This document shows positions 6,560 through 18,420 of a DNA stretch of 64,000 nt, one piece after another. Origin of the DNA: Sulfobacillus sp. (GTDB lineage Bacteria; Bacillota; Sulfobacillia; Sulfobacillales; Sulfobacillaceae); assembly GCA_027309085.1 (NCBI GenBank), contig DAIDDL010000019.1:1-64000 (forward strand), given 5' to 3'. The notes below the pieces were generated by a model. That model was not told where the DNA came from and made no database searches. It saw only the letters and a program-made list of their open reading frames with translations. How positions within the stretch are numbered: the first letter of the stretch is position 1; the number at the start of each line of letters is the position of its first letter. Both the position numbers and the translations under genes were made by a program.

Positions 6560-7852
6560 CTACAGGCCCCGGCCCTGGGCCCACTGCCCGTATTGGGCAA
6601 AGAACTCGGGGTAGCTGATCGCCACGCTCTCTTCCCCGTCAAGAGTCACCGGGCCGCGGGCCACCGCCGAGGCGACTGCCAGCATCATGGCGATGCGGTG
6701 GTCCCCTGAGGCGTTCACCCTGCCCCCGTGAAGAGGTGTGGGGCCGTAAATGACCATGCCGTCGGGCTGCTCTTCAATGTGGGCGCCGAGACTTCTCAAA
6801 CTTTCCACCGTGGCGTGAATTCGGTCGCTCTCTTTGACCCGCAGCTCTTCCGCACCCGATATGACGGTCTCGCCCTGGGCCTGGGTCGCCACCATAGCTG
6901 CCAGGGACACCTCGTCAATCATGTCCGGGATGTCCCCCCCCGCAATCACGACCCCGTGCAGGAGTCCGGGGCGGACCGTCATATCGCCTACCGGCTCTGG
7001 AACGGCGCTGGTCTCCTTAATGGTGATGCGCGCCCCCATGGCTTCCAGAACGCGGTAGAAACCTATCCGGCGGGGGCTCAGGCTGATGTTTTCTAGAGTC
7101 AGCTCAGAGCCGGCCGTAAGCGCCGCCAGCGCCGCCCAGAAAGCCGCGGAGGACGGGTCCCCCGGCACCTGCACCACGGCTGGGCGCAGGGAACTGGGCC
7201 ATACTGTGATTACACGGCGGGCGCACTCCACCCGCGCGCCCATCGCTTGCAGCATCCGTTCTGTGTGATCCCGGGTCGGGCGCGGCTCGGTAATGGCCGT
7301 TGGGCCCGACCCGCTCACGGCGGCGAGCAGCAGGGCCGACTTGACCTGGGCTGAGGCCACCGGCATGAGGTAGTCAATGCCGTGGTGCGGACCGCCGTGC
7401 ACCCGGACGGGGGCGTGGCCCGCCGTTGTCTGCACCTCCAGCCCCATGGCCCGCAGCGGTGCGGCCACCCGTTCCATCGGCCGTGATGATAAAGACGGGT
7501 CGCCTTGTAGTTCGCGGGTCTCCGGGCCCGCCGCCAGCATTCCCATGGCGAGGCGCATGGTTGTGCCGGAGTTGGCGCAGTCGATGGCGCCTGCGGGAGC
7601 TGGCCAGGCTCCTGGCCCCGGCGACTGGAGGATCCAGCGGTCACGGTCCTCCACGACCCGCACCCCCAGACTCTCCACCAGGCGGCGGCTGGCCAGGGTG
7701 TCGGCAGCCACCAGGGGCCGGATGACTGCGCTCTCGCCCTGAGCCAGAGCGGAAAACAAAATCGCGCGGTGAGTGACCGACTTGTCGCCCGGGGGGCGCA
7801 TAGACCCGACAACAGGGTTACGGCAGGGGTTCAATTCCATGGACTGCATCAT
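6560..7852 (-). CDS. aroA: 3-phosphoshikimate 1-carboxyvinyltransferase (EPSP synthase)
   Basis: PPGDKSVTHRAILFSALAQGES, DCANSGTTMRL, GDPSSAAFW, RVKESDRI, DHRIAMMLAVA motifs. Confidence 0.95.
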   Translation of the reverse strand: MMQSMELNPCRNPVVGSMRPPGDKSVTHRAILFSALAQGESAVIRPLVAADTLASRRLVESLGVRVVEDRDRWILQSPGPGAWPAPAGAIDCANSGTTMRLAMGMLAAGPETRELQGDPSLSSRPMERVAAPLRAMGLEVQTTAGHAPVRVHGGPHHGIDYLMPVASAQVKSALLLAAVSGSGPTAITEPRPTRDHTERMLQAMGARVECARRVITVWPSSLRPAVVQVPGDPSSAAFWAALAALTAGSELTLENISLSPRRIGFYRVLEAMGARITIKETSAVPEPVGDMTVRPGLLHGVVIAGGDIPDMIDEVSLAAMVATQAQGETVISGAEELRVKESDRIHATVESLRSLGAHIEEQPDGMVIYGPTPLHGGRVNASGDHRIAMMLAVASAVARGPVTLDGEESVAISYPEFFAQYGQWAQGRGL

Positions 7853-8789
7853 TCCTTTCAGGGGAGGATGGGGCGGCGCCCTGCGCCGCCAATGCGCGGC
7901 GGCGCGCGGCCGGCGCGCTGTTCAGGGCCGGGGGCCAGCCCCCTTGCTGGATCTGCCGATTCCAGGAATTGATGAGGTCCGCATAGCGCTGGAAAGTCTC
8001 CCGGACCGCATCGTGGTTGCTGTGGAGTATTTCCTGCCACAGTCCCATGTCGCTGGCCCCAATGCGGGTCGTATCCATAAATCCCGTACCCGCAACCTCA
8101 GGCCACTGGGCCAACTCAGCCGGGCTGTCCTGGGCGAGGGCAAGCACGGAGGCTGAAATCAGGTACGGGACATGGCTGACAAGGCTCATCAGCGGATCGT
8201 GAAGGTCCCAAGGGACGGTGACGGGCCTGGTGCCGAGAGTGTCCATCCACAAGCGCACCAGGTCCTCTGGCGGGCTATCCCGCCACGGGACCACCAGGCA
8301 CGGATGCCCCCGGAACAGTGCCCCGTCGCGGTAGGCAAACCCCCGCACTTCCTTCCCCGCCATAGGGTGCAGGGACAGGAGGCAGGAAGGCGGGAGCACC
8401 TGGCGGTAAAAGGGCTGCAAGGGCGTCTTGACGGAGGATACATCCACCAGCACGAGCGGGCGCCGGGCTTCCGCCACCACCTGCCTGATCCAGTCCCCCA
8501 CCACCGCCAGCGGGGAGGCCAATACGATCTGGTCCACGTGGCTGACCCATGACCTCCACGGCTCGCGGGTGCCGATGCCGGCTTCTTCGGCCATAAGGCG
8601 GACGGCGGGGTCCGGGTCCCACCCCACCACCTCAAAGCCCGCGTCGTGAAAAGCCTCCGCAATCGAGCCGCCTATCAGGCCCAGCCCAATGATGCCGATT
8701 TTCACCAAATGCCCGCGAGAAGCCCCGGGCTTCCGCCCTGGGGAGGAAAGCGGGCTTCCGCTCCTAGGCGGAAACGGGTTTTTGGTCAT
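7818..8789 (-). CDS. tyrA: Prephenate dehydrogenase; core begins at GTG 8705, in-frame ATG with good SD at 8789
   Basis: KIGIIGLGLIGGSIAEAFHDAGFEVVGWDPDP Rossmann motif, DVSSVKTP, HPMAGKEVRGF, PYLISASVLA. Confidence 0.9.
   Translation of the reverse strand: MTKNPFPPRSGSPLSSPGRKPGASRGHLVKIGIIGLGLIGGSIAEAFHDAGFEVVGWDPDPAVRLMAEEAGIGTREPWRSWVSHVDQIVLASPLAVVGDWIRQVVAEARRPLVLVDVSSVKTPLQPFYRQVLPPSCLLSLHPMAGKEVRGFAYRDGALFRGHPCLVVPWRDSPPEDLVRLWMDTLGTRPVTVPWDLHDPLMSLVSHVPYLISASVLALAQDSPAELAQWPEVAGTGFMDTTRIGASDMGLWQEILHSNHDAVRETFQRYADLINSWNRQIQQGGWPPALNSAPAARRRALAAQGAAPSSPERNDAVHGIEPLP
8723..8743 (-). repeat. Right-end subterminal hairpin of iscB element: CCCC-A-GGGC-GGAA-GCCC-GGGG
   Basis: Read directly; same layout as the left-end hairpin. 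Confidence 0.75.
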
Positions 8790-10050
8790 AGGTCCATCCT
8801 CCGTTGCGTTGTACAATGCGACAGTATTTGTACGAAATGCCCTGAACGATACGTCGTCCTTGCGCCGAGAGATCAAAAGAGCCACTGGTCCGCGCGAGAA
8901 CGCGGCCCGTGTGCGTGCCAGCGTACTTTCCTTTGGGCACCACCGCGCGTACCAGATCCCCCGTCTGAACCCCGAAGTGGACCCTCTGCCGTGACCGATG
9001 ACGGATGGGGAAGCCGTATTTGTCCGTGCCACACATTTGGCGGGTGCCCCGCCCCTTCGCAGTCCACACCTGCACGTAGGAGGGCAGGCGGGTGAAGCGA
9101 TCGGGCGTACTTTCGCCGACACAGAGCGCATCGTAATAGTGCTCTTTCGGGAAGCTGTGGTCGAGACGCTGTTTCTTGGTACGCCCGCCGGATCCGCCTT
9201 CGACAGGCAATCCCGTCGCTTTGAGCTGGGTGTAAAGCCGCCAGCGCGTGGCGTTCATCATCGCCGCATCTTTCAGCGGTTTCTTCGTCTGGGCCTGAAC
9301 CTCGGGATAGCCGAACTCTTCTGCCGTGCGATTGTTTTTCAGGAGGTTGCAGGGTTCGCACGCCAGGGCCAAGTTATTGATCCGATTCGTTCCGCCTCGA
9401 CTCTTTGGCACGGTGTGTTCAATCTGAAGCGGTACCTTCGTGCGACCGCAATAGGCACAGCACCGTCCCCATTTCTCCAGCAGGTATTCCCGCAGCTCGT
9501 AGCCTAAGAGGGTGCCTTGCTGGTATTCCACGCCTGAAATTTCCGGGTTCTCCAGTTTTTGCGTGTCAAAGCGAACATGCTCGACACTGATCATCGTGAT
9601 CGGCGCGAGTTTTCGGATCTTCGCTAAGGCATGGAGTGTCTGGCCTACGCGGGCTTCCAGCGACGGCGGCAACCACCCATCTTTCCGCTTGCGATTTTGA
9701 AATCTGGGCTTTCGATAGCGGGTCTTCCGATGCCGCCGCCCTCTGCGGAGCGCTCGCCGGGCATCCAGCTTGGCTTTGACGCCCACTTTGTGGACAATCT
9801 CCCCGAAGAAGAGGATCTTCTCGCCTTTGGCTCCTGTTAAGACGATGGCTACGCCTGTCGTCTTGCTGCCGGGGTCGAATTTGACGCGCAGCGGTTGGAA
9901 GAGGGATTCCTCCGCCGCTCGATCCTTCAGCCGGATGGTGAACGGGGCCATCTTATCAATGACGGCGCGACCCCTCTCCAGTAACTGCCGCGCCCGCTTT
10001 TCGGTGCAGGGCATCAGCGGTTTCTTGTGTCGGTCTAAGACAAAAACCAT
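8764..10050 (-). CDS. iscB: IscB RNA-guided endonuclease (PLMP, RuvC, HNH)
   Basis: KKPLMPCTEKRARQLLERGRA (PLMP), KFDPGSKTTGVAIV (RuvC-I), arginine-rich bridge-helix-like RRALRRGRRHRKTRYRKPRFQNRKR, ISVEHVRFD (RuvC-II), CAYCGRTKVPLQIEHTVPKSRGGTNRINNLALACEPCNLLKNNRTAEEFG (HNH), KEHYYDALCVG (RuvC-III); SD AAGGAGAGG before ATG 10050. Confidence 0.93.
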   Translation of the reverse strand: MVFVLDRHKKPLMPCTEKRARQLLERGRAVIDKMAPFTIRLKDRAAEESLFQPLRVKFDPGSKTTGVAIVLTGAKGEKILFFGEIVHKVGVKAKLDARRALRRGRRHRKTRYRKPRFQNRKRKDGWLPPSLEARVGQTLHALAKIRKLAPITMISVEHVRFDTQKLENPEISGVEYQQGTLLGYELREYLLEKWGRCCAYCGRTKVPLQIEHTVPKSRGGTNRINNLALACEPCNLLKNNRTAEEFGYPEVQAQTKKPLKDAAMMNATRWRLYTQLKATGLPVEGGSGGRTKKQRLDHSFPKEHYYDALCVGESTPDRFTRLPSYVQVWTAKGRGTRQMCGTDKYGFPIRHRSRQRVHFGVQTGDLVRAVVPKGKYAGTHTGRVLARTSGSFDLSAQGRRIVQGISYKYCRIVQRNGGWTYDQKPVSA

Positions 10051-10360
10051 ACGTTGGCCTCTCCTTTTGGAGCCCCGTAAGGGGCTAGTAACGTCTTCGT
10101 GAAAAAATCTCTCCTCGCCCGGGTTCCTTGAGGTCGCAACATCCCTCCGCACCGCTCGCAACACCCCAGCTGGCTTTTAACGGAGGACCACAGCGCATGG
10201 GACTGGAGAAGCATCCCAAGGTGTGCACTCAAGGAACGGAGCCGCTCGCCCCCAAGGTCCCGGCGACTAGGGCTGGTCATAGCGCCCTTGCAGGCTTTCC
10301 GGCTAAAGCCAGAGCCTGTCGGAAATGCATCCCGACAAGCCCCCGGCTTTAGCCGTGGGG
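10051..10360 (-). ncRNA. Putative IscB omega-RNA scaffold, 5' of iscB
   Basis: Long stem 10301-10310/10345-10354 (GGCTAAAGCC/GGCTTTAGCC) continuing into 10313-10322/10332-10341, plus perfect 10-bp long-range pairing 10228-10237/10123-10132 (GTTCCTTGAG/CTCAAGGAAC); correct position for an IscB omega-RNA. Confidence 0.7.
10340..10360 (-). repeat. Left-end subterminal hairpin of iscB element: CCCC-A-CGGC-TAAA-GCCG-GGGG
   Basis: Read directly. Confidence 0.75.
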
Positions 10361-10361
10361 T

Positions 10362-11375
10362 CTATGACATCGTCCGTCCAATCGCCTCGGCAATAGCTCC
10401 CAGGGATGCGACCAGCTCGCCCAGGTGGGGAAGGTTCAGGCTTTGCGGGCCATCCGACAGGGCTTCCGTGGGATTGGGGTGGGCTTCGATAATCAGTCCG
10501 TCCGCTCCGGCGGCTACTGCCGCGCGGGCCATCGGGGCCACCCAGTTCCACTGCCCGGTGGAGTGGGAGGGGTCCACCACCACGGGCAGGTGGGACAACT
10601 GCTTCACGACGGGGATTGCGCTCAGGTCCAGCGTGTTGCGGGTTTTGGTTTCATAGGTGCGGATGCCGCGCTCACACAGGACAATGTCCCGGTTGCCGTT
10701 GGCCGCAATATATTCGGCCGCCATCAGCCACTCGTCAATGGTGGCGGACAGGCCCCGCTTGAGGAGCACAGGCTTGTGCATCTGGCCCACCGCTTTGAGC
10801 AGTTCGAAGTTCTGCATGTTGCGCGCCCCGATCTGAATCATATCGGCCCACTGGGCGACGTTTTCCAGGCTGTCGCGGTCTACCGCCTCCGTAACGACCA
10901 TGAGGCCGAAGCGTTCCCGGGCCTCAGCCAGGATTTTCAAGCCGGCAACACCCATGCCCTGGAAACTGTAAGGCGATGAGCGGGGCTTGTAGGCGCCCCC
11001 GCGCAGAACCGTCAGCCCAAAATCATTCACCGCGCGCGCTGCCTGCATCACCTGGTCATGGCTCTCCACCGCACAGGGGCCAGCAATCACAATCACCCGC
11101 TTGCTGCCGAAAGCCGCCGGCCCGACGTTGACGATAGTGTCTTCCGGGTGGAAGTCGCGGCTGACCAGCTTGTAAGGCCTTCTCACCGGCACCACCTGTT
11201 CAACCGACTGCATCGATGCCAAACGAACTACCCCCTCTGTCCCCTCGCCAATGACCCCGATAATGGTGCGTTCCACTCCGCGCGAAATATGCACCTGAAA
11301 CCCTTCAGACTTCAAACGTTCCGTTACGGCATCAATATCAGCATCTGGCGCATTTTTTGTCATGACCACAATCAT
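10362..11375 (-). CDS. aroF: 3-deoxy-7-phosphoheptulonate synthase (DAHP synthase)
   Basis: [75 protein letters not shown] motifs. Confidence 0.95.
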
Positions 11376-11410
11376 GGAACATTCATCCCCTCGCAAGCGC
11401 TCATTTTCGT

Positions 11411-11690
11411 AAAAAAAATAAGGCCTCAACTGTCCCTTAGGGACGAAGGCCTTTTCTCCGCGGTACCACCCTATTGGCCGGTTGCCCGGCCACTCTGCTA
11501 GCTGCAAACACAGCTACTCCCCTTTAACGGTGGGATCCCGGATTCTCTACTCGCGCCGCAGCGCTTTCGATGCACACTCTTGGGTGTACGGTCTGGACTC
11601 GAAGTATCGGCTTACACCACCCGCCGACTCTCTGCGCCTTCGAAAATCCGACCCCTTCCCAATCATCGCTTTTTGTATTTTCCCGGATGA
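11411..11690 (-). promoter_or_regulatory. T-box riboswitch leader upstream of aroF, probable Tyr (UAC) specifier
   Basis: Minus strand AGGGTGGTACCGCGG (11458-11472), terminator AAGGCCTTCGTCCCTAAGGGACAGTTGAGGCCTTATTTTTTTT (11411-11453), Stem I CAGAGAG...GGTGTAAGCC. Confidence 0.9.
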
Positions 11691-18141: not shown

Positions 18142-18420
18142 AAAAAAATAGCCTATCATCCCTACCAAGGGACGAAGGCTTCTTCGTGGTGCCACCCTAA
18201 TTTAGACTGCATGCAGTCTCTTTTATTCCATACAGGTATTGTCCGATATGGCTTCCTGGATAACGGGGGAAGAGTCCGACCAAGCCTACTGTGATGCGTT
18301 TCGGTTGGTTGCTCATGGGCCCATTCTCAAGCATCTGCCTTGCCGAACTTTCACCACCGCCGGCTCGCTGAAAAGGTCAGGATGCTGATACTATTCCCAG
18401 TCACAGCATTTGCAACGTGT
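18142..18420 (-). promoter_or_regulatory. T-box riboswitch leader upstream of trpE, probable Trp (UGG) specifier
   Basis: Minus strand AGGGTGGCACCACG (18185-18198), terminator GAAGCCTTCGTCCCTTGG...GGCTATTTTTTT, Stem I AGCGAG...GGTGGTG and GAGAATGGGCCC. Confidence 0.9.

What the first reader, a model, noticed from the sequence alone, without database searches (positions are those of the whole stretch)
8764..10050. Apparently intact IscB RNA-guided nuclease (Cas9-ancestor family) in an aromatic amino-acid operon
Seen: one 428-aa ORF with a PLMP domain (KKPLMPCTEKRARQLL), RuvC-I Asp (KFDPGSKTTG), arginine-rich bridge-helix-like segment, RuvC-II Glu (ISVEHVRFD), complete HNH with zinc cysteines (CAYCGRT...QIEHTVPKSRGG...NNLALACEPCN) and RuvC-III (HYYDALCVG). 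Established: this layout defines IscB, an omega-RNA-guided nuclease encoded by IS200/IS605-superfamily elements. No frameshift or missing catalytic residue is evident, unlike the decayed elements at the left of the window, so it may be active. The host appears to be a Sulfobacillus-like acidophile, so a thermo- or acid-adapted IscB would be useful (inference).
Basis: partly seen in the sequence, partly recalled or inferred. Interest (0 to 1): 0.85.

Follow-up and report, generated by a model that had tools for sequence, protein, structure and literature searches.

The report
IscB mobile element between aroF and tyrA
This is an intact member of the known IscB family of RNA-guided DNA cutters, carried with its guide RNA in a small mobile element that inserted exactly at the start codon of a tyrosine-biosynthesis gene; comparing it with about 120 relatives shows which short DNA motif it must read and which two amino acids probably read it.

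Summary
An intact 428-aa IscB (8764-10050, minus) has all catalytic residues and is under purifying selection (dN/dS about 0.1 against a paralog in the same genome). Together they form a 1,663-bp element (8706-10368) with no transposase of its own. It sits between the DAHP synthase (aroF) and prephenate dehydrogenase (tyrA) genes, at the GTGA where aroF's stop and tyrA's start overlap in relatives with an empty site. It adds one residue to AroF and leaves tyrA's start codon intact. The predicted guide is the last ~16 nt of aroF; the predicted TAM is GTGA(A). The element is an ordinary new member of a known kind: its own genome has 13 IscB matches. Two family-wide patterns are more interesting. 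Insertions fall on start codons far more often than chance (27 of 64, against 8-11% expected). Two C-terminal residues covary with the TAM: 389 Ser/Thr/Asn with A, Arg/Lys with G at base 4; 341 Arg with A, Gly/Asn with G at base 1. Both agree with published IsrB TAMs. I found no prior report, but key papers were not readable. Cleavage was not tested.

The parts
8706..10368 (-). whole IscB/HEARO element (1,663 bp), omegaRNA-first left end at 10368, right end at 8706
   Evidence: ends found by comparing copies that diverge outside them; empty sites in relatives; length
8764..10050 (-). iscB, 428 aa (PLMP, RuvC I-III, bridge-helix-like region, HNH, C-terminal TAM-interacting-like domain)
10103..10368 (-). 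omegaRNA scaffold (Rfam HEARO RF02033, model 1-211 of 211)
   Evidence: 101.3 bits against gathering 83; 32 of 73 consensus pairs changed on both sides in at least one relative
10369..10384 (-). predicted guide, 5'-CGATTGGACGGACGAT-3' (about 16 nt, host flank = 3' end of aroF)
   Evidence: position directly 5' of the omegaRNA scaffold; the only near match in the genome is itself, followed by GTCA, not RTGA
8702..8705 (-). predicted TAM, GTGA (followed by A), in the right flank; also tyrA start codon GTG + A
   Evidence: published IsrB TAMs NTGA/NTGG (PMC9581776)
10341..10360 (-). left-end subterminal hairpin CCCCACGGC-TAAA-GCCGGGG
   Evidence: sequence; pairs 12-30
8723..8743 (-). right-end subterminal hairpin CCCCAGGGC-GGAA-GCCCGGGG
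   Evidence: sequence
7818..8705 (-). tyrA, prephenate dehydrogenase, start GTG abuts the element
   Evidence: Pfam PDH_N/PDH_C; 295 codons open from the junction
10362..11507 (-). aroF, DAHP synthase; now ends ...GRTMS with TAG supplied by the element
   Evidence: PF00793 273 bits, TIGR01361 390 bits
6560..7852 (-). aroA, EPSP synthase, next gene of the operon
   Evidence: PF00275 350 bits, TIGR01356

Best explanation
The feature is a non-autonomous IscB/HEARO element of IS200/IS605 type, lying in the sense direction of the aroF-tyrA-aroA operon. The transcript carries about 16 nt of aroF as guide, then the HEARO/omegaRNA scaffold, then the iscB message. IscB binds the omegaRNA and makes a double-strand break in DNA that has the guide sequence followed by RTGA. 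Such DNA is the empty aroF-tyrA junction, in a sister chromosome after excision or in a related incoming chromosome; repair from an occupied copy then restores or spreads the element. The inserted copy protects itself because the element separates guide from TAM (the guide is followed by GTCA, not RTGA). Movement would need a Y1 transposase acting in trans. Shown by sequence: protein, RNA, element ends, empty site, TAM-like flank, selection. Inferred from the family: RNA-guided cleavage, homing/retention, trans mobilisation.
For: Profile 423 bits against 175. Foldseek top hits are the IscB-omegaRNA complexes, 8csz E 7.9e-23, then IsrB and Cas9 (model pLDDT 78.7). Catalytic and zinc residues are invariant in 48 relatives. 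HEARO RNA lies directly upstream with covariation. dN/dS is 0.11-0.13 against the 86% paralog in the same genome. Thirteen IscB matches and 12 HEARO in the genome. Twelve relatives have the aroF-tyrA junction uninterrupted at (A/G)TGA. Close copies share sequence up to exactly the GTGA. The TAM agrees with measured NTGA/NTGG TAMs of IsrB orthologues (PMC9581776) and covaries with residues 341 and 389.
Against: No cleavage, RNA expression or transposition data exist. No transposase in cis, and none of the genome's five Y1 TnpA has recognisable HEARO ends beside it. Homing is a family model, not observed here. Fold TM-scores are modest (0.42-0.57 of the query among IscB/IsrB hits); the model is RNA-free and has low-confidence segments.
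Confidence: 0.93

Rival explanations
1. The locus is a fixed, domesticated IscB that works as an operon component or regulator of tyrA rather than as part of a mobile element.
For: It is in the sense orientation inside an essential-pathway operon, with an intact ORF and no transposase in cis. A start codon with GGAGG inside the iscB 3' end reads in frame through the right end into tyrA.
Against: Eleven other HEARO copies at unrelated sites in the same genome. The insertion is absent from all relatives whose aroF-tyrA junction was read. Element ends are shared with copies elsewhere. The in-frame start is present in only 5 of 8 close elements.
Confidence: 0.05
2. The element is a dead relic: the ORF is intact by chance but the RNA or protein no longer functions.
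For: Many decayed copies with stops or truncations in this and related genomes.
Against: All active-site residues present, full-length omegaRNA above the Rfam cut-off, dN/dS about 0.1.
Confidence: 0.08
3. On the wider pattern only: start codons are enriched at the junctions merely because insertions inside genes are lost, not because of target choice or homing into conserved gene starts.
For: Most RTGA sites lie inside genes (694 of 825 in an annotated 50 kb), where insertion would be harmful.
Against: Even among sites that do not break a gene, start codons are 15 of 131 (11%), against 27 of 64 insertions (42%), p 4e-10. That null rests on one plasmid stretch with an incomplete gene table.
Confidence: 0.4

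Closest known systems
OgeuIscB and other IscB (OMEGA) nucleases (PDB 7xht, 8csz; TbaIscB 9k30)
   Same: PLMP-RuvC-bridge-HNH-RuvC order, catalytic residues, upstream omegaRNA, fold
   Different: about 20% identity in fold alignments; 428 aa against 496 for OgeuIscB; predicted TAM RTGA against NWRRNA-type for OgeuIscB (NWRGNA in PMC13180657)
HEARO elements (RF02033) and their nucleases (PMC9755519)
   Same: the same element type: HEARO RNA in the 5' region of the nuclease ORF; few have TnpA nearby, as stated there
   Different: new copy at a new site; no functional difference established
IsrB (DtIsrB, 8dmb)
   Same: TAM NTGA; the fourth base is read by a residue (Q326) whose change to Arg admits G (PMC9581776); residue 389 here behaves analogously
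   Different: IsrB lacks HNH and only nicks; the window protein has a complete HNH. I did not align Q326 with 389 residue by residue
IscB of Ktedonobacter racemifer, Allochromatium, Halomonas/Vreelandella
   Same: about 50-56% identical to the window protein, same RNA and end structure
   Different: ATGG flank in K. racemifer with Arg at 389; ATGA in most of the others

Membership tests
IscB (OMEGA RNA-guided nuclease) | N-terminal PLMP and RuvC-I with catalytic Asp | tested here: met
   PLMP at 11-14, D59 invariant; PF14239 RRXRR
IscB (OMEGA RNA-guided nuclease) | complete HNH inserted between RuvC-II and RuvC-III | tested here: met
   E157, HNH 198-241 with C198/C201/C231/C234, H212, N235; H304/D307
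IscB (OMEGA RNA-guided nuclease) | family profile above curated cut-off | tested here: met
   NF040563 423 against 175 bits; Cas9 models far below cut-off
IscB (OMEGA RNA-guided nuclease) | omegaRNA encoded directly upstream | tested here: met
   RF02033 101 against 83 bits, full model, covariation
IscB (OMEGA RNA-guided nuclease) | fold of solved IscB complexes | tested here: met
   Foldseek top hits 8csz, 9liq, 9k30, prob 1.00, TM of query 0.47-0.57
IscB (OMEGA RNA-guided nuclease) | omegaRNA-dependent, TAM-dependent double-strand cleavage | not testable with these tools
   needs biochemistry
IS200/IS605 superfamily element | subterminal hairpins, no inverted repeats, no target duplication, fixed target motif at one end | tested here: met
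   hairpins at both ends; flanks join to the empty-site sequence without duplication; RTGA at the right flank
IS200/IS605 superfamily element | Y1 transposase TnpA in the element | tested here: not met
   none in the element; five Y1 TnpA elsewhere in the genome; so described as a non-autonomous element of this type, not as a full IS200/IS605 IS
CRISPR-Cas9 / Cas9d | Cas9-family profile above curated cut-off | tested here: not met
   Cas9d 38 against 375 bits, Csn1 18.9 against 100; only 428 aa

The most novel reading that the evidence does not exclude
HEARO/IscB elements are start-codon elements. Their TAM (RTGA or RTGG) coincides with start codons, so insertion leaves the downstream protein whole and takes its guide from the ribosome-binding region. 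The TAM is read by two residues (341 for base 1, 389 for base 4, window numbering), so the TAM of an IscB of this clade can be read from its protein sequence.
Probability: 0.65. Interest if true: 0.6.

Novelty: new member of a known kind. Interest (0 to 1): 0.45.

Why it matters
As a single locus it adds one more intact IscB, from a Sulfobacillus relative, with its guide RNA, guide and TAM all predictable, so it can be tested directly. If the wider patterns hold, they explain why these elements can sit in essential operons without harm, and they give a simple two-residue rule for predicting or retuning the motif requirement of compact genome editors.

Tried and rejected
Longer GTG start at 10164: rejected, homologs align from 10050. 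Domesticated regulator: rejected, many other copies and empty sites. TnpA linked to the element: none found. A relay start codon inside iscB that reads into tyrA (ATG at 8789-8787 with GGAGG): real in the window and 4 close elements but broken in 3 of 8, so probably a by-product of coding constraint. Off-target sites for the guide in the own genome: none with fewer than 3 mismatches apart from the locus itself. Searching solved structures with the C-terminal domain alone gave only ribosomal L19 noise. First AlphaFold run with 16 sequences was poor (pLDDT 65) and was repeated with 48. Weinberg 2009, Kapitonov 2016 and Altae-Tran 2021 are not in the library; from memory, Weinberg 2009 already reported ATGA/GTGA as HEARO integration sites, so the RTGA motif itself is not claimed as new.

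Full report
What is there. The minus strand of 8764-10050 holds one uninterrupted 428-aa ORF. It is an IscB: NCBIfam NF040563 423 bits against a cut-off of 175, Pfam RRXRR plus HNH, nearest solved sequences TbaIscB, HfmIscB and OgeuIscB. In 48 relatives the RuvC residues D59, E157, H304 and D307, the HNH residues H212 and N235 and the zinc cysteines are invariant and present here. An AlphaFold2 model from 48 sequences (pLDDT 78.7) has IscB-omegaRNA complexes as its best PDB matches, 8csz at E 7.9e-23. Against its 86%-identical paralog in the same genome dN/dS is 0.11-0.13, so the protein is kept by selection.

The RNA. Rfam finds HEARO RF02033 at 10103-10368 on the same strand, full length, 101 bits against 83. 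Ten close elements share the structure, and 32 of 73 consensus pairs have changes on both sides in at least one element. HEARO is the omegaRNA of IscB (PMC9755519).

The element and its site. Copies that differ in their surroundings share sequence from GTCATAG (left, 10368) to ...GGGCATTTG (right, 8706), followed in every copy of the nearest cluster by GTGA in the flank. Twelve relatives have aroF and tyrA joined at a four-base (A/G)TGA overlap of stop and start codon exactly where the element sits here. Hence the element is 8706-10368. aroF gains one Ser and takes its stop from the element; tyrA keeps its GTG start. The genes are DAHP synthase, prephenate dehydrogenase and EPSP synthase by profile.

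Guide and TAM. The bases 5' of the omegaRNA, CGATTGGACGGACGAT, are the 3' end of aroF. In the nearest relative (L032) 14 of these 16 match and are followed by GTGAAA. In the own genome the only near match is the flank itself, followed by GTCA, which is not a TAM.

How common. The genome has 13 IscB matches, six of them near full length, and 12 HEARO RNAs; relatives in the same family have up to 37 IscB matches. Five Y1 transposases exist in the genome, none next to HEARO ends. PMC9755519 also notes that few HEARO nucleases are near TnpA.

Start codons. For 64 distinct insertions with both ends called, 27 have the flanking RTGR as the start of a frame open for at least 100 codons with an in-frame stop upstream in the rejoined empty site. 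Random RTGR sites in the same flanks do so in 7.9% of cases, p 8e-14. In an annotated 50-kb plasmid stretch start codons are 15 of 131 RTGA sites that break no gene, p 4e-10. A ribosome-binding-like motif is present in 27 of 64 left flanks against 16% at random. Independent annotated plasmids agree: the next annotated gene starts at the junction in L174, L175, L176, L178 and L180, and within a few bases in frame in L171 and L179; it does not in L170, L172, L173, L177 and L181. Viral contigs repeat the tendency: 14 of 27 open for 100 codons against 27% expected. Caveats: junctions were called with a pattern that requires RTGR, copies from one genome are related, and the tolerated-site null comes from one stretch.

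TAM-reading residues. In 73 discovery elements with a residue aligned at column 389, all 60 RTGA elements have a residue other than Arg/Lys (Ser 31, Thr 24, Asn 4, Ile 1) and all 13 RTGG elements have Arg or Lys. One junction (L162) was re-called from GTGA to the overlapping ATGG after the pattern was seen (its gene, peptide deformylase by eye, starts there), so before that re-call there was one exception. Held-out viral and plasmid elements: the automatic calls gave 21 A-sites, none with Arg/Lys, and ten G-sites, four with Arg and six with Ser/Thr. On inspection five of those six had a better RTGA junction. With hand calls, which were not blind to the residue, the table is 31 and 3 for A-sites (other; Arg/Lys) and 1 and 11 for G-sites, p 3e-7. 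The TAM base changes about 11 times on a tree built without the C-terminal domain, so this is not one lineage. Residue 341 tracks base 1: Arg with A (44 of 55), Gly/Asn/Thr with G (17 of 18); held-out automatic of 19 and 5 of 5. DtIsrB reads the fourth TAM base with Q326, and Q326R admits G (PMC9581776); the pattern here is the same kind, though I did not align Q326 with 389. The window protein has G341 and S389, matching its GTGA flank.

Mechanism. Shown: intact protein, structured RNA, precise insertion, empty sites, TAM-like flank, purifying selection. Inferred: the operon transcript supplies guide plus omegaRNA; IscB cuts empty aroF-tyrA junctions carrying guide plus RTGA, favouring retention or spread by repair; transposase acts in trans. 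Not tested: any activity, acid or heat adaptation.

Verdict. An intact, ordinary new member of a known kind, with two family-wide patterns worth a direct test.

Noticed in passing
window 18165-18413 (minus): T-box leader RNA (RF00230, 124.9 bits), the only other Rfam hit in the window.
   Followed up: no
L001, L002, L061, L095, L100 (window 8787-8789 for L001): An ATG with GGAGG/GAGG before it inside the iscB 3' end reads in frame through the right end into the downstream start codon, so the downstream gene could be made with a ~28-aa leader; absent in L003, L063, L064.
   Followed up: partly
L004, L005, L120, L156, L162, L164, L168, L174-L176: In many elements iscB has no stop of its own; its stop is the TGA at the junction, overlapping the next gene's start (ATGA or TGATG), a classic arrangement for coupled translation.
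   Followed up: partly
L178 (Deinococcus sp. KNUC1210 plasmid): An iscB element sits between parA and parB, exactly at the parB start codon.
   Followed up: no
L182 (Polaromonas pPNAP01): Two IscB elements within 4 kb of each other, both ending at annotated start codons.
   Followed up: no
L061 / L090 (G029:C39): The only IscB copy seen with a Y1 TnpA reading frame in its flank; could be an autonomous relative.
   Followed up: no
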